Notes under the pieces: model-generated
Databases searched by the model: none
Seen by the model: the letters and a program-made list of their open reading frames with translations, nothing else
Told to the model about the DNA's origin: nothing
Shown: in pieces, positions 8,375 to 19,337 of the stretch
Position numbering within the stretch: the stretch's first letter is position 1
Layout of the letters: each line of letters starts with the position of its first letter
Program-made: the position numbers and the translations under genes
DNA from: Zasmidium citrigriseum
Taxonomy: Eukaryota > Ascomycota > Dothideomycetes > Mycosphaerellales > Mycosphaerellaceae
Reading direction: 5' to 3'
Assembly (NCBI GenBank): GCA_002786025.1
Contig: NHNW01000018.1
Coordinates: forward strand, 310,001-374,000
Length of the DNA stretch: 64,000 nt

Positions 8375-9365
8375 TAAGGCAAAGTCGCGACAGCAGATGC
8401 TCTTCAGTATGTCCAAGTCAGACAGCTATTACGAATGAAATGCAAGAGCATGCACTTCTTTACTGACTCTCCGCACTACCACCTTCTCCCTTTCTTAAGT
8501 TGTTCGAGATACAGATGGAGCCGGGGCCCAAGAATCTACCAAGACCGGAACGTGGAGTGAGGCATCGTCTGATAAGTCCCAGCGGCTGACGGGAAATTCG
8601 CAGAGACAACACTGATTGGAAGCGACCAATCCTACTTCTGTCTGGCGCTTGGTTTTGCGGCACCGGTCTGGAACCACCAACGCTCCCCACTCTCCAGCCG
8701 TGCATCTCCCGTGTGGAGCACCACAGCTCGCGTGTGTGCCATGTGCTATCCCTGCACATATCGCTCGGCCCCCAAATGCATTTGCGTCGGTTTGGCTGGG
8801 CGCGCAGAGAGGCAGCTCCATCGTGTTTGCATGAACGACCTTTACTAACATGATCCCAGCTTCCGCCAACCATCGAGCATATCCCGGCCTATATCTCGAG
8901 AGCACAGTCTTGTGTGGCCAAAGTGAAAGAAAAGTGGTTCGTGGAGACCCCAGATTCCCGGCCCCGAGATCCCAAGATCCTCCGCAAAGCTGAGACGCTC
9001 TCCAAGATCCGCCAAGTGCCAACTCTTGGGCAGAACCATTCCAAAGTCGTACGGCCTCCGTATCGCTACGACTGGTGGAAATTCCCTTCACGACTCAAGC
9101 AACAATCCAAGACGGCCCAAGACGAACAATAGCCTGAGTCCACATGCTGCCATTGGTGCAAATCACATGGTTATACAAGCACATGGACTTCACCTCTTGG
9201 CGTTGGTACCGATGCAGGACAGCTGAAGACAGTGGACAAGGGGAAGAGATGAATAGATCTATCCAGCTGCTGCCCACAGGCTCTCCTCTTTCCATCGCAA
9301 CGAGGCTCGACCTCCCCAACTCCCTCCAACTCCTAGCTGCTAGGCAAGCAACCCCCTCAGCCATC
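8375..9365. other. Intergenic, about 990 bases; sugar-transporter promoter
   Basis: A long frame on the minus strand (9091-8495) is Gly/Ser/Cys-rich with no family signal and I do not accept it. A few SYGGRG-type sequences occur (CCGGGG near 8521, and GTGGGG and CTGGGG on the minus strand near 8688 and 8948). CreA-type carbon repressors bind such sites, but this motif is short and expected by chance. Confidence 0.35.
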
Positions 9366-11236
9366 ATGTTCAAACCCCCCAAAATCTACAACACCTACTT
9401 CGTCGCCTGCGTCGCCACAATCGGCGGCATGCTCTTCGGCTTCGACATCTCCTCCATGTCCGCCATCATAGGCACAGACCAATACAACGACTTCTTCGAC
9501 AAGCCCGCCGGAATCCGTCAAGGCGCCATAGGCTCCTCCCTCGCTGCCGGCTCCATCTTCGGGTCTGTCATCGCCGGTCCAGTATCCGACTGGATGGGCC
9601 GCAGGAACTCTATTGGATTCGCGTGTCTGTGGTGGTTGGCTGGCACAGCGATGCAGGCTGGTGTTACGGGGTTTGGGACGTTGATTGCGGGACGAGTGTT
9701 GAATGGCGTTTGTGTGGGGATTACGAGTAGTCAGGTGCCGGTTTATATTGCGGAGATTGCGAAGAAGGAGAAGAGAGGGGCGTTGATTATTATTCAGCAG
9801 TTGGCTATCGGTAAGTACTTCTTATCAAGTAAGAAGGAGTACATGAGTTACTAACGGTTAACAGAATGGGGCATCCTGATCATGTACTTCATCGGCTATG
9901 GCTGCAGTTTCATCGCCGGCTCGGCCTCGTTCCGCACAGCCTGGGGGATTCAATTTGTGCCCTGCTTCTTCCTGATCGTTGGACTGCCCTTCCTGCCAGA
10001 ATCGCCACGCTGGCTTGCAAAGAAGGACCGCGGAGCGGAAGCAATCGATGTTCTGGCACGAATCCAAGCTGGCGGCAACGTTGACGACCCTCTCGTCGTT
10101 GCTGAGTGGGAGGAGATCACCATGACCCTGGCTGCAGAGCGAGCAGCCCTCAAAGGCTGGCGTAAATTCGTCTACAACGGCATGTGGAAGCGAACTCTGG
10201 CAGGCTTCACAGTGCAGATGTGGCAGCAGAATTCCGGTGCAAACGTGATGACCTACGTGAGTCAACTTTCACACTCTTCCATCCCTTTTCACACTTTATC
10301 TGTCTTTTGCTAACAATCACCTCCAGTACGTCGTCTACATCTTCCAAATGGCCAACCTAACCGGCAACATCAACCTCATCGCCTCAGGCATCCAATACGC
10401 CCTCTTCATCATCTTCACCACCATAATGTTCTTCTACATCGACAAGACCGGCCGTCGACCGCTCCTCATCTGGGGTGCTGTGGCCATGGGCATCTGCCAC
10501 TTCGTCGTCGGCGGCGTCCTGTCTTCCGGCGAGAATGTTCCAGGAGGCGTGGACGGCAATCCTAATGTGCTTATTCGGGTTACAGGGTCTCCGGCGTATA
10601 CGGTGATTGCATTTTGTTATTTGCTCATTATCGTTTATGCGTTGACGTTAGCCCCCGTCTGTTGGGTCTATGCGGCGGAAATTTGGAGTTTGGAGACGAG
10701 GGCTACGGGGATGGGGATTGCTGCTAATGGAAATTGGTTGGTAAGTTGCACATCACTCTTCATTTCTAGCTGTGTGAGGATCCGGTTGACTGACTGATGA
10801 TAGTTTAACTTTGCTCTTGGCCTCTATATCCCTCCCGGGTAAGCATCCTCATCGACTGCCGAGATCTTTGCTGATTTCAACCCCAGCTTCATGAACATCA
10901 AATGGGGCATGTTCATCGTCTTCGGCGCCATGTGCTTTCTCGCCGCCGTCCACTTCTACTTCACGTATCCAGAAACCAGCAACAAAACGTAAGCGAAGCT
11001 AGTCACAATCTCCAAGAGCTAGGCTGACTCCCATAATTAGATTGGAAGAAATCGAGGAAATGTTCGCCCCTGGTGGTCCAAAGCCTTGGAAGACGAAGCC
11101 CGGCCATTCGAAATTGGATGCTTTGATTTCAGAGGCCCAAGAGAAGCATTTGACGATTGAGGATGTGAAGGACGGCAAGACGGGTGAGAGAATGTCGAGT
11201 GTACATGCGGAGGAGGTGAGGGCGGAGAAGGTGTGA
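9366..11236 (+). CDS. MFS sugar transporter, hexose type
   Basis: Six exons (9366-9810, 9865-10256, 10327-10740, 10804-10838, 10887-10988, 11041-11236) encode 527 residues. Signatures of the sugar-porter family are complete: GGMLFGFDISSMSAIIGT at the first helix, DWMGRRNSIG after helix 2, RVLNGVCVGITSSQVPVYIAEIA, LPESPRWLAKK at the end of helix 6, DKTGRRPLL, and PETSNKTLEEIEEMF after helix 12. These belong to plasma-membrane proton-coupled or facilitative hexose carriers. The FDISSMSAIIGT segment resembles fungal high-affinity glucose transporters, but whether the substrate is glucose, fructose or another hexose cannot be read. The C-terminal tail of about 60 residues is cytosolic and Lys/Glu-rich. 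All introns are 48-70 nt with clean borders. Confidence 0.92.
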
Positions 11237-12929: not shown

Positions 12930-13535
12930 TCAGCGAAACCTCTCCAACGCCTCCCTCAACAACCTCATCGTCCTCCTCGTCTCCCCACTCGAATCCACAA
13001 CCACCAACTTCCCCCTCCACCTCTCCAAAATCTCCCCATTCCTCTCCTCAAACTCCTGATACCTCTTCTCAAAAACCTCTCCCGAATCCGTACTCTCCCT
13101 CTTCCGACTCAGAAACCTCTCCTTACACACCTCTTTCGGACAGTCAAAGAATATCACACTCCCCACCACCACACCAGGAATCCGCTCGAAGAGCGCCCCG
13201 CTGTCCGCGTCCCGTGGGAAGCCGTCGATGATGAATTTCTTCCAGCCGTTTCTTCGTTCGAGGCACAGTTTGTACCAGAGGATTGCGACGATGTTCTCGT
13301 TTGGGATCAATTCGTGATTGGACAGGTGTTGTTTTAGCTCGTGATTGGTGAGGCCGCCGAGAGCTTGGGAGGTTGAGGCAGTGGTTTTCAGGGAGCGGAG
13401 GTAGTCGCCGACGGAGAGATGGTAGGCGCGGGTTTTGCGGGCGAGGATGGCGCAGATGGTGCCTTTGCCGCTGCCGGGGGCGCCGATGATGAAGGTTACT
13501 TTGATGGGGTTGGTGATGGAGGGTGCGGTGCTCAT
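12930..13535 (-). CDS. Nucleoside-monophosphate kinase (adenylate/UMP-CMP kinase family)
   Basis: Single exon, 201 residues from ATG 13535. The Walker A loop GAPGSGKGT is at residues 18-26. The NMP-binding motif LSVGDYLR is at 40-47, IIDGFPR at 102-108, and a short lid (RKRESTDSGEVFEKRYQEF) at about 144-162. The short lid and compact size fit the UMP-CMP kinase/short adenylate kinase branch, which transfers phosphate from ATP to an NMP in the cytosol. Base specificity is not certain. It is transcribed away from the viperin gene, whose ATG is only 415 bases from this one. A TATATA-like sequence on the minus strand at about 13595-13603 sits about 60 bases upstream of the start. That partner suggests supply of NTP substrate or processing of viperin products, by analogy with CMPK2-RSAD2. 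This role is inference. Confidence 0.88.
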   Translation of the reverse strand: MSTAPSITNPIKVTFIIGAPGSGKGTICAILARKTRAYHLSVGDYLRSLKTTASTSQALGGLTNHELKQHLSNHELIPNENIVAILWYKLCLERRNGWKKFIIDGFPRDADSGALFERIPGVVVGSVIFFDCPKEVCKERFLSRKRESTDSGEVFEKRYQEFEERNGEILERWRGKLVVVDSSGETRRTMRLLREALERFR

Positions 13536-13950
13536 GATGGGTTTCGGGTAAGTCTGACTTTAAGGAAATCTCATCGAGGAGAGAGAGGATAGGGGTTTGA
13601 TATATACACTCTTTTGGAGGGTGGATTCCTCGCGGAATGGTGGAGAAGGGTCTTGAAGCCGTGCCTTTGAGTGTATGAGACTTGCATGTTAGTGGGAAGT
13701 ACATCTCCTAGGATTCCCCTTGGGCTCTGCATTTCGCATGGCCTTTGTTGGATCTTATTTGCTTCAAAGCCTGTAGTTCCGTTGAGATTGCTGTCGATCA
13801 GCAGGCAGTAAGACTGGCCTGATCGAGAGGCCTGGAGGCACAAACGTTTGTCAAACATAGCCGTCCCCTCCTCAAACGTCGTATCCCAGTCCGGGTGCGA
13901 AGGTATAGATATCGGACCGTACGACGTTCCACTGGTATTGTAGGTCAAAG
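13536..13950. promoter_or_regulatory. Shared divergent promoter, NMP kinase / viperin
   Basis: 415 bases between two divergent ATGs. On the minus strand GTATATATC near 13595-13603 is a plausible TATA element for the kinase. No coding frame spans it convincingly. Co-regulation of the two genes is an inference from the head-to-head arrangement. Confidence 0.45.
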
Positions 13951-15042
13951 ATGGCGCTTCTCAAGATGATCTTTGGCCCTTTTGCCGGCAGTGTGATCGC
14001 AGCAGTCGTGATCTGTGTCACACTCTTCCTTGTCTTCCATTTGAATATCCTCGATGAAACCGCAACACAGCAAGTCGAACAGCAAACTGATACCGCAGGC
14101 ATCAGTCAACAAGACGAGAACGCCCACGAAGACAACGAAAATGATCCCCCAATCCCCCTCTCCGTCAACTTCCACTTCACCCGCAAATGTAACAAGACCT
14201 GCGTCTTCTGCTTCCACACCGAGAAGACGAGCTATGTCGAAAACATCGAAAACATGCAGCGAGGCCTCCGCCTGCTCAAAGAAGCCGGGATGAAGAAGAT
14301 CAACTTCGCTGGTGGCGAACCCTTCCTCTATCCCAAACTCTTGGCTCAACTCTGTCGATACTGCAAAGAAGACCTGAAGCTCGAGTCTGTTTCGATCATT
14401 TCGAATGGATCTCTGATCAAGAAGCGGTGGTTGGAAGAGAATGGGAAGTACATCGATGTGCTTGGCATCAGCTGTGACAGTTTCGATGAGGAGACGAATA
14501 TCAAGATCGGCCGTGGTGATGGGAACAACGTGGGCAAGTTGTTCGAGATTCGGTCTTGGTGTGCCGAGTCTGGTATCAAGTTCAAACTCAACACGGTCGT
14601 GCTGCTCTGGAACTGGGAAGAGGACATGTCGAAGACGATTGAGGAACTCGATCCCTTCCGCTGGAAGGTTTTCCAAGTCTTGCCCGTCGAGGGCGAGAAC
14701 GACGCTTCGCAGCAAGAGACCGAGCTCGACAAGCGCAAGCGGAATGCCAATAAGGTCTTGATCTCTGACGAGCAATTTGCGGCTTTCTGTAAGAGACATG
14801 AGCATCTGTCGTGTTTCGTGCCGGAGTCGAATCAGTTGATGGCTTCGAGCTATCTGATCGTGGATGAGTTCATGCGGTCTTTGGATAAGGGCAGCGGGAA
14901 GGAGACGGCGTCGAAGAGTATCCTGGAGGTAGGCGTTCGGGAGGCGATGAAGCAGGTACGCTGGGATCAGCAGGCGTATCTGGATCGCGGTGGTGTGTAT
15001 GAATGGAGTAAGGCTGGGATGGCCAAGGAGCTTGAGTGGTGA
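13951..15042 (+). CDS. Viperin-like radical SAM enzyme (RSAD2 homologue)
   Basis: Single exon, 363 residues. Residues 1-33 form a hydrophobic membrane anchor (a VIAAVVICVTLFLVF core), replacing the amphipathic ER/lipid-droplet helix of animal viperin. A linker rich in Gln/Asp/Glu follows. The radical-SAM core starts at SVNFHFTRKC: CX3CX2C is C80-C84-C87 (CNKTCVFC), GGEPF is 121-125, SNGSL 151-155 and ISCDSFDEE 173-181. PFRWKVFQVLPVEGEN and CFVPESNQ follow, all diagnostic of viperins rather than other radical SAM enzymes. The protein ends in Trp, as in viperins, where the C-terminal Trp is needed for CIA-mediated Fe-S loading. Known viperins turn CTP (or other NTPs) into 3'-deoxy-3',4'-didehydro-NTPs that terminate viral RNA synthesis. 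NTP choice here is not determined. Neighbours are a nucleotide kinase (divergent) and a CYTH-type triphosphate enzyme (downstream, same strand). Confidence 0.95.
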   Translation: MALLKMIFGPFAGSVIAAVVICVTLFLVFHLNILDETATQQVEQQTDTAGISQQDENAHEDNENDPPIPLSVNFHFTRKCNKTCVFCFHTEKTSYVENIENMQRGLRLLKEAGMKKINFAGGEPFLYPKLLAQLCRYCKEDLKLESVSIISNGSLIKKRWLEENGKYIDVLGISCDSFDEETNIKIGRGDGNNVGKLFEIRSWCAESGIKFKLNTVVLLWNWEEDMSKTIEELDPFRWKVFQVLPVEGENDASQQETELDKRKRNANKVLISDEQFAAFCKRHEHLSCFVPESNQLMASSYLIVDEFMRSLDKGSGKETASKSILEVGVREAMKQVRWDQQAYLDRGGVYEWSKAGMAKELEW

Positions 15043-15462: not shown

Positions 15463-16278
15463 ATGTTCTCTCTCGGCCCAACTCTGCGCAGCATGCGCAC
15501 AAGCCTCGCTCACAAGTCCCTCTCATCGACCGCCTACAAGCGCCTCTCAACCTCGCCTCCCAAAATCACCCAGCTCGAAGTCGAGCGCAAGTTCAACGTC
15601 ACCAAACCCCTCGACATCGAGCTCAAGAAACAAGAGCAAAAGAACAAGATCTCCAAGCAGGGTCCAGTACTCGATCCTCACGCCGCAGTGCTCACATTCT
15701 CCGACAAGCGCTACAACCACATCAAGGATGAGTACTTCGACTTCGAAGGCGCGCTGGCTGCCAAGGGAATTTGGATCCGTAAGCGCACGATTGACACCCT
15801 GCCGGTCGAGTGGGAGGCTAAGGTGCGAGTGAGCGGGGACTTCCAGAACTCCGGCTTTGAGGAAGTTTATGGCGAAGAGCAGGTGATGGAAATGGTGGAG
15901 AAAGTCATCCCGGTGTCCAAGCTGGTATCCAAAGTAGAGCTTCTCACGGAGCGGGAGAGCTGGGTTGTGAAGGACCATTTCCTCGAGGCTATGATGATGC
16001 TGGATTACTGTAGCGCGCCCAGTGCTCCTCCAGTTAAGCGCGAAGGCAAGGACTTGAAGTGGATCCATGCGGTTGGAGAGGTGGAGATGATTCGCAATAT
16101 CGAGTTGACTGGAAATGCCGGAGTGGACCAGGTGAAGAAGGCTGATATGAGTGCATGGATGGATTACGAGTTGAAGGAGTTCATGCTGCGCCATGAGAAG
16201 CTGTTCCCAACAACCCCGGCTCCGGTTGGGAAGCTCACGGCTTTCTTCAAGTGGAGGGATATGGTTGCTGGACGTTGA
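15463..16278 (+). CDS. CYTH-domain protein, thiamine-triphosphatase-like
   Basis: Single exon, 271 residues. The N-terminus (MFSLGPTLRSMRTSLAHKSL...) is Arg/Ser-rich and free of acidic residues for about 30 positions, as in a mitochondrial presequence. LEVERKF at 38-44 is the opening ExExK-type metal/triphosphate motif of CYTH enzymes. Later charged strands (KGIWIRKRTIDTLPVEWEAKVRV, HAVGEVEMIRNIE) fit the triphosphate tunnel. CYTH enzymes hydrolyse thiamine triphosphate, inorganic triphosphate or related substrates, or make cAMP. The sequence most resembles fungal proteins annotated as thiamine-triphosphatase-like, without proof of substrate. It lies 420 bases downstream of viperin on the same strand. 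Confidence 0.72.
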   Translation: MFSLGPTLRSMRTSLAHKSLSSTAYKRLSTSPPKITQLEVERKFNVTKPLDIELKKQEQKNKISKQGPVLDPHAAVLTFSDKRYNHIKDEYFDFEGALAAKGIWIRKRTIDTLPVEWEAKVRVSGDFQNSGFEEVYGEEQVMEMVEKVIPVSKLVSKVELLTERESWVVKDHFLEAMMMLDYCSAPSAPPVKREGKDLKWIHAVGEVEMIRNIELTGNAGVDQVKKADMSAWMDYELKEFMLRHEKLFPTTPAPVGKLTAFFKWRDMVAGR

Positions 16279-16627: not shown

Positions 16628-17101
16628 CTATGATCCCCTGTATGTCGTATAACTCCAAGGTCCTAGCAGCAGCGGCACGTGATAATGCTCTTCCTCTTTC
16701 TTCGCAGCAAACCTCAACTCCACCTCCGGCCAGAACGTTTTGCCCTTCCCGAAGTATGCTTCTGTATCAAACGTCAAGCTCCACACCATCTGCTCTCCAT
16801 CTTTCATGTCCGCTTTGACGCTCTTGACAATATCGTTCATGTCCACGGATGATGTCCATGTAGGTACGCGGCCATCGCTATTCGTTGTGGCGGTCCAGTG
16901 CGCAGTGGTGGCTTGGGAGGGATATATGAGCTTTAGCTTGACGGAGATGTTGGCGCCAGGCTTCCCGGAGATGGTATCGAGGACGTGGCAGGTTATGAAC
17001 GGTCGTTGGGACATTGTGGTCTTTGGGAGCTGGTTGGAGAGGGCGGAGAGGCGGTCGGCTGTTTTTGTGATCCCAATTCGATTGTTTGAATCTTTGGGCA
17101 T
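16628..17101 (-). CDS. 5-hydroxyisourate hydrolase (transthyretin-like)
   Basis: Single exon, 157 residues. The core starts ITCHVLDTISGKPGANISVKL (about residue 36) and ends HYHVPLLLGPWSYTTYRGS, carrying the YRGS C-terminal signature that separates this enzyme from transthyretin. The catalytic His, Arg and Ser/Tyr-Arg set of the family appears intact. It hydrolyses 5-hydroxyisourate, the product of urate oxidase, on the way to allantoin. An ATG at residue 30 would give the bare domain, but the longer start adds RLSALSNQL (residues 17-25). That matches the PTS2 consensus [RK][LVI]x5[HQ][LA], so I prefer it and expect peroxisomal import. The allantoate-type permease at 241-1829 is in the same pathway area, but linkage may be chance. 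Confidence 0.9.
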   Translation of the reverse strand: MPKDSNNRIGITKTADRLSALSNQLPKTTMSQRPFITCHVLDTISGKPGANISVKLKLIYPSQATTAHWTATTNSDGRVPTWTSSVDMNDIVKSVKADMKDGEQMVWSLTFDTEAYFGKGKTFWPEVELRFAAKKEEEHYHVPLLLGPWSYTTYRGS

Positions 17102-17891: not shown

Positions 17892-19337
17892 TCAAATCTT
17901 TTGGTGCATCTTCAGCTCCTGCGCAGCCACACGCGCAATCTCCCTCGCCGACGGCCTTCTATCGAAGCGGTCATTCGTCAGGTCCTTCACCATGCCATGC
18001 AACTCTGGAGTGAATCTCATACCACATGGCTTCGAAGAAGCCAGAGCGGGGCGATGAGGGGCCGAAGTGAGCAAGCAGATCACCTGGATCGTGGCACCAA
18101 GCATCCAGATGTCCGTTCGAGTGCCGTATCCACCTCCGACAAGTCCCTCTGGCGGATACCATCCTGGCGTTCCGCATGGCTGGGCGTGTTCCTTCTCCCT
18201 CCGGTTCTTGATGTCGTTGAAAGTCACCGCGCATCCAAAATCAGCGAGGATGATGCGGCGCTGTCCGTTCTCTTTGCGCTCGTTGGAGAGGAAGATGTTC
18301 TGCGGCTTGAGGTCCAGGTGAGCAATGGTATTCCAATCCGGATTTGGCCGATCGCGCTCAACGTCCTTGATACCGGTGTGAAGGAAAGCGAGCGCTTTTG
18401 CAACGCTCAGAAGAACATGCCAGACTGCCGCCTCGGAGAAGCCTGGACCCTTCGAGGCCATGTCCGCGATTCTCTGGTCGAGTGAGCCTCCGTCGCAGTA
18501 CTCAAGGATGATGCTGCAGACTCCGTTACCTTTAGCGTCGTACTCGATCATGTGATTGAGGTTGGGATGGCCTCGAACTGCCTTCAGCGCCTCAAGCTCT
18601 GCGTTGACTCTCCTGCCACGGGGTCCATCCGTGCGGACCTTCTTCTCAACAAACAGCTTGCCGTTCGCCCTGCTGCGCACGATGGTGATGGATTCTGACA
18701 TTCCGCCTGGTGTAAGGGATTTGACTCGTTCGTACTTGGCCCGGGGTTTCCCTCGCTGTCGAACATGTTCCCGTGGCTGGTGGTCTGGCTGATTGCGCTC
18801 AAGTCGAGAAGGGTCGAATACATTGCCTGCAAATGGTGCACCTGCTTGCAGAAGTCGCTGCTGACGAGGAGCAGGAAACGGATCTTGCAGACCTTGCATC
18901 CGTCGAGGATCTCTCATGCCTGGAGCATCCATTGGATGCATTGGAAGCTGACCCATTCCTGGCATCCCCATACCCATTGGCGGCGGACTCCTTCTCTTAT
19001 GCCTGTCTCGCGGCTCACGCCCTCTCATCCCTGGCGGACCCATTGGAGGTCGGTCCGCCATCTCAGGTGGCCAGCCTCCTGGTTGTGGCATTCGCAGCTG
19101 CGGCGGTGCCATGCCTCGAGGAGCGGCCATTGGATGGCCGAATTGCGGAGCCATTATTGGCATGGGAAAAGGTCCATCGAAAGGCATTCCGCCCAAACCC
19201 ATGCCTTGAGCTGGAAATGGAACGCCGCCCACTGGCGCAAGACCGCGAGGATCCATCGGCATGCCTTCCATACCGTCGATTGCGCCCAAAGCAAAAGCCT
19301 CGAGCTCTGGTGGAACGCCGAACGGAGGGCCGAACAT
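17892..19337 (-). CDS. Protein kinase with Met/Pro/Gly-rich N-terminus
   Basis: Single exon, 481 residues. Residues about 1-165 are a low-complexity Met/Pro/Gly/Phe region (repeats of the GMPMDP, GPFPMP, PMGMGMPGMG kind), followed by a basic segment. A kinase domain occupies about 205-475: a KLFVEKKV strand carrying the ATP-binding Lys, IILEYCDGGSLDQRI hinge, AHLDLKPQNIFL catalytic loop, ILADFGCAV metal-binding loop, and GTPGWYPPE in place of the usual APE. HRD is replaced by HLD, so it is a non-RD kinase. The Lys, catalytic Asp and DFG Asp are all present, so activity is possible. The hinge and loop resemble NEK-like fungal kinases, but I do not assign an orthologue. Confidence 0.82.
   Translation of the reverse strand: MFGPPFGVPPELEAFALGAIDGMEGMPMDPRGLAPVGGVPFPAQGMGLGGMPFDGPFPMPIMAPQFGHPMAAPRGMAPPQLRMPQPGGWPPEMADRPPMGPPGMRGREPRDRHKRRSPPPMGMGMPGMGQLPMHPMDAPGMRDPRRMQGLQDPFPAPRQQRLLQAGAPFAGNVFDPSRLERNQPDHQPREHVRQRGKPRAKYERVKSLTPGGMSESITIVRSRANGKLFVEKKVRTDGPRGRRVNAELEALKAVRGHPNLNHMIEYDAKGNGVCSIILEYCDGGSLDQRIADMASKGPGFSEAAVWHVLLSVAKALAFLHTGIKDVERDRPNPDWNTIAHLDLKPQNIFLSNERKENGQRRIILADFGCAVTFNDIKNRREKEHAQPCGTPGWYPPEGLVGGGYGTRTDIWMLGATIQVICLLTSAPHRPALASSKPCGMRFTPELHGMVKDLTNDRFDRRPSAREIARVAAQELKMHQKI

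What the first reader, a model, noticed from the sequence alone, without database searches (positions are those of the whole stretch)
12930..15042. Fungal viperin head-to-head with a nucleotide kinase
A complete viperin (CX3CX2C, GGEP, viperin-specific FHFTRKC and PESNQ blocks, terminal Trp) shares a 415-bp divergent promoter with an adenylate/UMP-CMP-kinase-family gene. Vertebrate RSAD2 and CMPK2 are also divergent neighbours, and prokaryotic viperins are often next to nucleotide kinases. The kinase family here differs from CMPK2, so the pairing may have arisen independently. It suggests a fungal ddhNTP-producing defence module against mycoviruses or mobile RNA. The families are seen in sequence; the joint function is inferred.
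Basis: partly seen in the sequence, partly recalled or inferred. Interest (0 to 1): 0.88.

Follow-up and report, generated by a model that had tools for sequence, protein, structure and literature searches.

The report
Fungal viperin paired with nucleotide kinase
In this fungus the antiviral enzyme viperin sits head-to-head with a small nucleotide kinase, and the same two genes are kept together in many other moulds, which suggests that fungi built their own version of the viperin–kinase partnership known from animals and bacteria.

Summary
A complete viperin (13951-15042 +) and a complete 201-aa kinase (12930-13535 -) are divergent, 415 bp apart. It is the only viperin found in this genome; the kinase is extra, as Ura6-, Adk1- and Adk2-like genes lie elsewhere.

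The pairing is conserved. In 6 of 6 pairs with positional numbers (all Sordariomycete-type) the genes are consecutive. The kinases form one fungal clade (63 of 81 tree rows, SH-aLRT 100).

The kinase is adenylate/UMP-CMP type (PF00406), not the thymidylate-kinase type found beside 10 of 75 prokaryotic viperins. Where 18 of 18 ordinary relatives carry Gln or Asn, 67 of 79 subfamily rows do not (here Ser).

Most likely it feeds nucleotides to viperin, as CMPK2 is thought to. That role, induction and antiviral effect are inferred; orientation elsewhere could not be read. Linkage of viperins to nucleotide kinases is already known in general (Shomar 2024, recalled, not readable here). This is a fungal variant.

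The parts
12930..13535 (-). Adenylate/UMP-CMP-kinase-family gene, 201 aa, single open frame
   Evidence: AlphaFold2 mean pLDDT 93.9; nearest folds AK1 (2c95) and yeast uridylate kinase 1uky
13458..13484 (-). Kinase P-loop (residues 18-26, GAPGSGKGT)
   Evidence: G23 and K24 in 79 of 79 subfamily rows
13395..13415 (-). Subfamily signature SVGDYLR (residues 41-47): Val42 (75 of 79 rows) and Tyr45 (71 of 79) where the 18 ordinary kinases have Ala/Thr/Ser and Leu/Ile/Met
13200..13226 (-). DGFPRDADS (residues 104-112); Ser112 stands where ordinary NMP kinases have Gln/Asn (base reading, recalled)
13536..13950 (.). 415-bp divergent intergenic region, putative shared promoter; four short inverted repeats only
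13951..15042 (+). Viperin (radical-SAM nucleotide dehydratase), 363 aa, single open frame
   Evidence: only copy found in the genome
13981..14037 (+). N-terminal hydrophobic segment of viperin (residues 11-29, mean hydropathy 2.74), likely membrane anchor
14188..14211 (+). CxxxCxxC [4Fe-4S] motif (residues 80-87)
14311..14322 (+). GGEP motif (residues 121-124)

Best explanation
The locus is a conserved two-gene fungal viperin module. Viperin, probably anchored in a membrane by its N-terminal segment, uses radical SAM chemistry to turn a pyrimidine NTP (CTP and/or UTP) into its 3'-deoxy-3',4'-didehydro analogue, which stops RNA polymerases of RNA viruses or other mobile RNA. The neighbouring kinase, a dedicated branch of the adenylate/UMP-CMP kinase family with an altered acceptor site, phosphorylates the nucleoside monophosphate that feeds this reaction, as CMPK2 is thought to do for animal viperin. 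A shared promoter would let both be induced together. Shown here: the genes, their families, the conserved linkage, the separate clade, the sequence change in the acceptor site. Inferred: substrate, direction of flow, co-induction, antiviral role.
For: 37 of 118 kinase relatives share an exact contig length with one of 120 listed viperins; 35 of the 37 contigs exceed 30 kb, the other two are 8,629 and 4,460 bp; both records are named in 33 of 37 and the species agree in all 33. All 6 pairs with positional locus numbers are consecutive (ANO14919, E0Z10, O1611, NUW58, RRF57, PG986). One kinase clade of 63 of 81 rows, SH-aLRT 100, excludes the genome's own Ura6, Adk1 and Adk2. Residues expected to be catalytic (recalled) are kept: K24, R47, R108, R144, R158. 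Gln/Asn of the presumed base site is missing in 67 of 79 rows and present in 18 of 18 ordinary relatives. Kinase and viperin distances correlate over 36 pairs (r 0.81, 0 of 2000 permutations as high). [quoted passage not shown] CMPK2 is adjacent to and inverted against RSAD2 and its over-expression raises ddhCTP (PMC10058120, passages).
Against: No expression or biochemical data. 83 of 120 listed viperins, including the Zasmidium, Zymoseptoria, Ramularia and Mycena rows, had no listed kinase on a contig of equal length (lists were capped and clustered at 90%, so 37 is a lower bound). 29 of the 64 top-ranked kinases had no listed viperin on such a contig. Adjacency is shown by numbering for only 6 pairs, all of the Sordariomycete type; for the other linked pairs only a shared contig length is known. 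The distance correlation is at least partly shared ancestry (r 0.60 within the Sordariomycete rows). In EBV-infected B cells CMPK2 knock-down did not significantly lower ddhCTP (PMC12889620, preprint, passages), so even there the kinase may be dispensable. The lost Gln/Asn could mean a substrate other than CMP/UMP.
Confidence: 0.6

Rival explanations
1. The kinase acts after viperin: it re-phosphorylates ddhNMP (or another non-standard NMP) released by turnover, or keeps the analogue active, instead of supplying the substrate.
For: The Gln/Asn position is Thr, Ser, Ala or Cys in 67 of 79 subfamily rows (51, 12, 2 and 2) while catalytic residues stay, which suggests an unusual acceptor. Ordinary Ura6 is already present for CMP/UMP.
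Against: The ddh change is in the sugar and the altered residue is expected (recalled) to touch the base, so the change does not point specifically at ddhNMP. No assay.
Confidence: 0.2
2. Viperin and kinase make a secreted or stored nucleoside natural product, not an intracellular antiviral.
For: [quoted passage not shown] A sugar-transporter gene piece and a weak, sub-threshold CYTH-like gene lie nearby.
Against: No biosynthetic gene was recognised among the few neighbours scanned, and their conservation was not tested. Viperins of animals and bacteria are antiviral (PMC11249213, passages).
Confidence: 0.1
3. The kinase is an ordinary paralogue and the linkage is old gene order without joint function.
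For: Neighbouring genes can stay together by descent; the kinase tree roughly follows the fungal classes; r falls to 0.60 within Sordariomycete rows.
Against: Consecutive numbers in 6 of 6 testable pairs (5 Xylariales-like records and Apiospora) plus immediate adjacency in this fungus, whose kinase and viperin are closest to Dothideomycetes. Fungal gene order between classes is usually scrambled (recalled).
Confidence: 0.1

Closest known systems
Vertebrate RSAD2-CMPK2 pair
   Same: Viperin beside a nucleotide kinase in inverted orientation; CMPK2 and viperin are often co-expressed and CMPK2 is thought to supply CTP (PMC10058120, PMC12889620, passages).
   Different: CMPK2 has the P-loop GLDATGKT (PMC10058120, passages), like the thymidylate-kinase-type partners in L034/L054/L069 (GLDATGKS). 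The fungal kinase is PF00406 with GAPGSGKGT.
Prokaryotic viperins with adjacent or fused kinases (pVip)
   Same: Viperin abutting or fused to a nucleotide kinase: 15 of 75 loci here; 15% of bacterial viperin genes according to PMC11249213 (passages).
   Different: Kinases there are PF02223 (10 loci), fused PF13189 (2 loci) or AAA_17/AAA_18 type (3 loci); none of the 18 ORFs scanned matched PF00406 at E 0.01.
Eukaryotic UMP-CMP kinase / Ura6 (TIGR01359)
   Different: 98 bits against a cut-off of 207.6; Val42, Tyr45 and Ser112 in the acceptor site; a separate clade.
Fungal viperins TtRSAD2 and Trichoderma virens viperin (6b4c)
   Same: Same enzyme family; TtRSAD2 takes pyrimidine NTPs (PMC9642334, passages).
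   Different: No neighbouring kinase is mentioned in the passages read.

Membership tests
Viperin (SAND, RSAD2) | Radical SAM core with CxxxCxxC and GGEP | tested here: met
   PF04055 71.6 bits; motifs present
Viperin (SAND, RSAD2) | Score above the NCBIfam viperin model covering prokaryotes, NF038283 | tested here: met
   256.3 bits against 180
Viperin (SAND, RSAD2) | Score above NCBIfam 'antiviral radical SAM protein viperin' TIGR04278 | tested here: not met
   392 bits against 450; this 'exception' model is probably set for a narrower group (inference), so the claim is limited to the broader family
Viperin (SAND, RSAD2) | Makes ddhNTP from NTP | not testable with these tools
   needs enzyme assay
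CMPK2 | Thymidylate-kinase-type domain (PF02223; that CMPK2 is of this type is recalled) | tested here: not met
   PF00406, AAA_17, AAA_18 and AAA_33 match, PF02223 does not at E 0.001
Ordinary UMP-CMP kinase | Score above TIGR01359 cut-off | tested here: not met
   98.4 bits against 207.6
Ordinary UMP-CMP / AMP kinase | Gln or Asn four residues after FPR | tested here: not met
   Ser112; 18 of 18 ordinary rows have Q or N
Adenylate/UMP-CMP kinase superfamily (PF00406) | Profile match, fold and catalytic residues | tested here: met
Viperin-kinase gene pair | Genes adjacent and conserved as neighbours | tested here: met
   adjacent in the window; 6 of 6 numbered pairs consecutive; 37 of 118 on contigs of identical length
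Viperin-kinase gene pair | Divergent shared promoter in other fungi, and co-induction | not testable with these tools
   no fungal DNA beyond this genome was on offer and no expression data

The most novel reading that the evidence does not exclude
Fungi evolved, independently of animal CMPK2 and of prokaryotic thymidylate-kinase partners, a dedicated branch of NMP kinases with a rebuilt base pocket that serves only viperin. The pair predates the split of Dothideomycetes and Sordariomycetes and forms a fungal innate antiviral module with its own nucleotide specificity.
Probability: 0.4. Interest if true: 0.78.

Novelty: new variant of a known kind. Interest (0 to 1): 0.62.

Why it matters
Viperin has been linked to nucleotide kinases in animals and prokaryotes; the prokaryotic partners examined here and CMPK2 are of other kinase families. 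A conserved fungal pair with a PF00406 kinase would be a separate recruitment of the same partnership. It would argue that making or keeping ddhNTP profits from a dedicated kinase. It also gives a tractable system to learn what fungal viperin does in the cell, for which I found no direct answer in the passages read.

Tried and rejected
Housekeeping Adk/Ura6: rejected, because the genome has Ura6-, Adk1- and Adk2-like genes on C68, C63 and C103 (names are my reading). CMPK2 orthologue: rejected, no PF02223 match; the genome's one clear PF02223 gene is on C72, and a second, weak hit on C68 is the Ura6-like gene. PADLOC gave no match to the kinase. Intergenic region: four short inverted repeats, nothing convincing. 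Chance equality of contig lengths: 9 kinase-viperin coincidences within 20 bp but unequal show that lengths can fall close by chance. Against chance: 35 of the 37 equal lengths exceed 30 kb, and the species agree in 33 of 33 pairs where both records are named. In the two short ones (4,460 and 8,629 bp) the records are unnamed; their kinases fall in the Dothideomycete group of the tree and their viperins are 74% and 67% identical to the window's. The idea that loss of Gln/Asn tracks pairing is not borne out: 34 of 37 rows with a same-contig viperin and 33 of the other 42 rows (the window's own row is among these 42) lack it (no test was run).

Not done: DNA around the other fungal pairs (no fungal collection was offered; the metagenome cap was 0), so orientation and spacing elsewhere are unknown. 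Viral contigs were not scanned. Literature: ten paper searches of the held open-licence library listed no paper that, by title and start of abstract, deals with a fungal viperin-linked kinase; three listings were cut (25 of 100, 20 of 98, 12 of 70). Shomar et al. 2024 and Bernheim et al. 2021 are not held. Shomar's abstract, recalled, says eukaryotic viperins diversified through partnerships kept by genetic linkage, notably with nucleotide kinases; it may already contain fungal cases.

Full report
What is there. The viperin ORF (13951-15042, +) and the kinase ORF (12930-13535, -) are complete, start with ATG, end with TGA, and face away from each other across 415 bp. Viperin carries CxxxCxxC at residues 80-87, GGEP at 121-124, the HFTRKCN and PESN blocks and a terminal Trp, and a hydrophobic N-terminal segment at residues 11-29. 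It matches NF038283 at 256 bits (cut-off 180) and falls below the cut-off of TIGR04278 (392 against 450). In PADLOC it matches the pVip models. Its closest solved relatives are 9dfw, 9dgw, 7n7i and 6b4c. A search of the window's own genome (44.4 Mb, 148 contigs) with TIGR04278 finds no other viperin.

The kinase is an extra one. PF00406 gives six matches at four loci in the genome: C68 reads as Ura6 (UMP-CMP kinase), C63 as Adk1, C103 as Adk2, and the window gene. These three names are my reading of the sequences. The window kinase is 35% identical to the Ura6-like protein over 179 columns. It scores only 98 bits against TIGR01359 (cut-off 207.6). PF02223, the thymidylate-kinase model, does not match it at E 0.001; one clear PF02223 gene lies on C72, and a second, weak hit is the Ura6-like gene itself.

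The pair is conserved. The protein search with viperin listed 120 of 2492 matches. Two searches for the kinase, the second with a four-sequence profile, listed 19 and 120 of 5192 (only 7998 candidates were scored). Of the 118 kinases in the last list that have a contig length, 37 have exactly the length of the contig of a listed viperin: 35 of the 64 ranked above P0201 and 2 of the 54 below (P0212 and P0248, both with the subfamily motif). In 33 of the 37 both records are named, and the species agree in all 33. Two of the contigs are only 8,629 and 4,460 bp long; the other 35 exceed 30 kb. Six pairs bear positional gene numbers on both sides and all six are consecutive: ANO14919_043260/043270 (tags in steps of ten), E0Z10_g4921/g4920, O1611_g450/g451, NUW58_g802/g803, RRF57_012444/012443, PG986_000200/000199. 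These six fall in the Sordariomycete branch of the kinase tree. The others show a shared contig only, up to several megabases long. 83 of 120 listed viperins had no such match. Clustering at 90% and capped lists make 37 a lower bound, but the absence for Zymoseptoria, Zasmidium, Ramularia and Mycena rows suggests that the pairing is not universal. 29 of the 64 top kinases had no listed viperin partner either.

Ancestry. In a quick maximum-likelihood tree of 81 kinases (16 fragments dropped) the fungal group is one clade of 63 rows, SH-aLRT 100, on a stem of 1.19 changes per column; the genome's own Ura6, Adk1 and Adk2 fall outside. The three chosen outgroup rows did not form one side of a branch, and several long branches were flagged. 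Inside, the window kinase pairs with P0001 (98) in a 10-row group (84, not a starred branch) with the Dothistroma, Meristemomyces and Recurvomyces kinases; a 50-row branch (98) holds Diaporthe, Xylariales, Apiospora and Stachybotrys; Polytolypa and two unnamed rows fall outside both. That Dothistroma and its group are Dothideomycetes, the 50-row branch Sordariomycetes and Polytolypa a Eurotiomycete is recalled. This looks like descent with the species. Kinase and viperin distances over 36 pairs (the window and 35 of the 37) correlate (r 0.81, 0 of 2000 permutations at least as high; 0.60 in Sordariomycete rows alone). Shared ancestry accounts for at least part of that.

Active site. The AlphaFold2 model is confident (pLDDT 93.9) and closest to AK1 and yeast uridylate kinase. 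Residues known (recalled) to be catalytic in the family are kept. The alignment used for counting holds 97 chosen rows: 79 of the subfamily (the 63 of the tree clade and 16 fragments assigned by likeness) and 18 ordinary relatives (three from this genome, 15 picked from the hits). Three acceptor-site positions differ: Val42 in 75 of 79 rows (ordinary: Ala, Thr, Ser), Tyr45 in 71 of 79 (ordinary: Leu, Ile, Met), and residue 112, where 18 of 18 ordinary relatives have Gln or Asn and 67 of 79 subfamily rows have Thr, Ser, Ala or Cys. That residue 112 reads the base is recalled from AK1/UMP kinase structures, not shown here. Among kinases with a same-contig viperin 34 of 37 lack Gln/Asn, among the other 42 rows (the window's own included) 33 do, so the trait belongs to the subfamily and was not shown to track detected pairing.

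Comparison with prokaryotes. A scan of prokaryote genomes gave 75 viperin loci. ORFs near viperin with a P-loop or a kinase-profile hit were picked, and 18 of them, from 16 loci, were scanned with Pfam. Abutting or fused kinases were found in 15 of 75 loci: PF02223 in 10 (L012, L014, L015, L018, L020, L024, L034, L045, L054, L069; in L045 and L069 the kinase is split over two frames), fused PF13189 in 2 (L039, L051), AAA_17/AAA_18 type in 3 (L068, L070, L072). L030 has a PF02223 gene 1.1 kb away on the other strand and is not counted. None of the 18 matched PF00406 at E 0.01. A fragment 5.7 kb from the viperin of L047, at the end of the stretch, resembles the adenylate kinase profile and was not scanned further. 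L034, L054 and L069 have the P-loop GLDATGKS, as in CMPK2 (GLDATGKT; PMC10058120, passages).

Literature seen. PMC10732462 (passages) treats viperins as ancient in eukaryotes and has no occurrence of 'kinase' in its main text. PMC11249213 (passages) says 15% of bacterial viperin genes lie next to a CMPK2-like kinase. [quoted passage not shown] PMC8124187 (passages), PMC10058120 (passages), PMC12889620 (a preprint, passages) and PMC12988326 (passages) were also seen; term searches inside PMC11291487 and PMC12114427 gave no passage. Shomar et al. 2024 is not held; from memory its abstract names genetic linkage of eukaryotic viperins with nucleotide kinases. So the principle is not new; the fungal PF00406 partner with an altered acceptor site may be.

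How it likely works. Viperin makes a ddh-pyrimidine triphosphate; the kinase raises supply of the precursor nucleotide. Function together is likely from the linkage (about 0.75 in my judgement); substrate supply is the best single role; action on ddhNMP or a non-standard NMP remains open because of the altered site.

Noticed in passing
window 15463-16278 +: Next gene downstream of viperin, same strand: 271 aa with a weak, sub-threshold CYTH match (E 0.015, 15.5 bits against 23.2) and an EVERKF stretch; a possible triphosphate-tunnel enzyme, which would be interesting beside a triphosphate-making enzyme. A sub-threshold TcpS match ranks above it, and no solved structure matches well.
   Followed up: partly
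window 16628-17101 -: HIU hydrolase/transthyretin family gene (PF00576, 117 bits).
   Followed up: no
window 17892-19337 -: Protein kinase domain gene with a Pro/Met/Gly-rich N-terminus.
   Followed up: no
window 9144-9854 +: Piece of a sugar-transporter gene (PF00083, 99 bits), probably continued in later exons.
   Followed up: no
P0150 and P0095 (records named Lasiodiplodia mahajangana): The kinase groups firmly with Nemania kinases (SH-aLRT 100) although Lasiodiplodia is a Dothideomycete (recalled); the record name may be wrong.
   Followed up: no
L068 6695-7402, L070 5637-6344, L072 6695-7402: Methanolobus viperins overlap the open frame of an AAA_17/AAA_18-type P-loop protein, a further kinase-like type beside viperin.
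   Followed up: partly
L012 6788-8140, L018 6904-8142: Cyanobacterial viperins are flanked by a TMK-like kinase upstream and a gene with a P-loop (RGIAGSGKS, helicase-like by eye) downstream.
   Followed up: no
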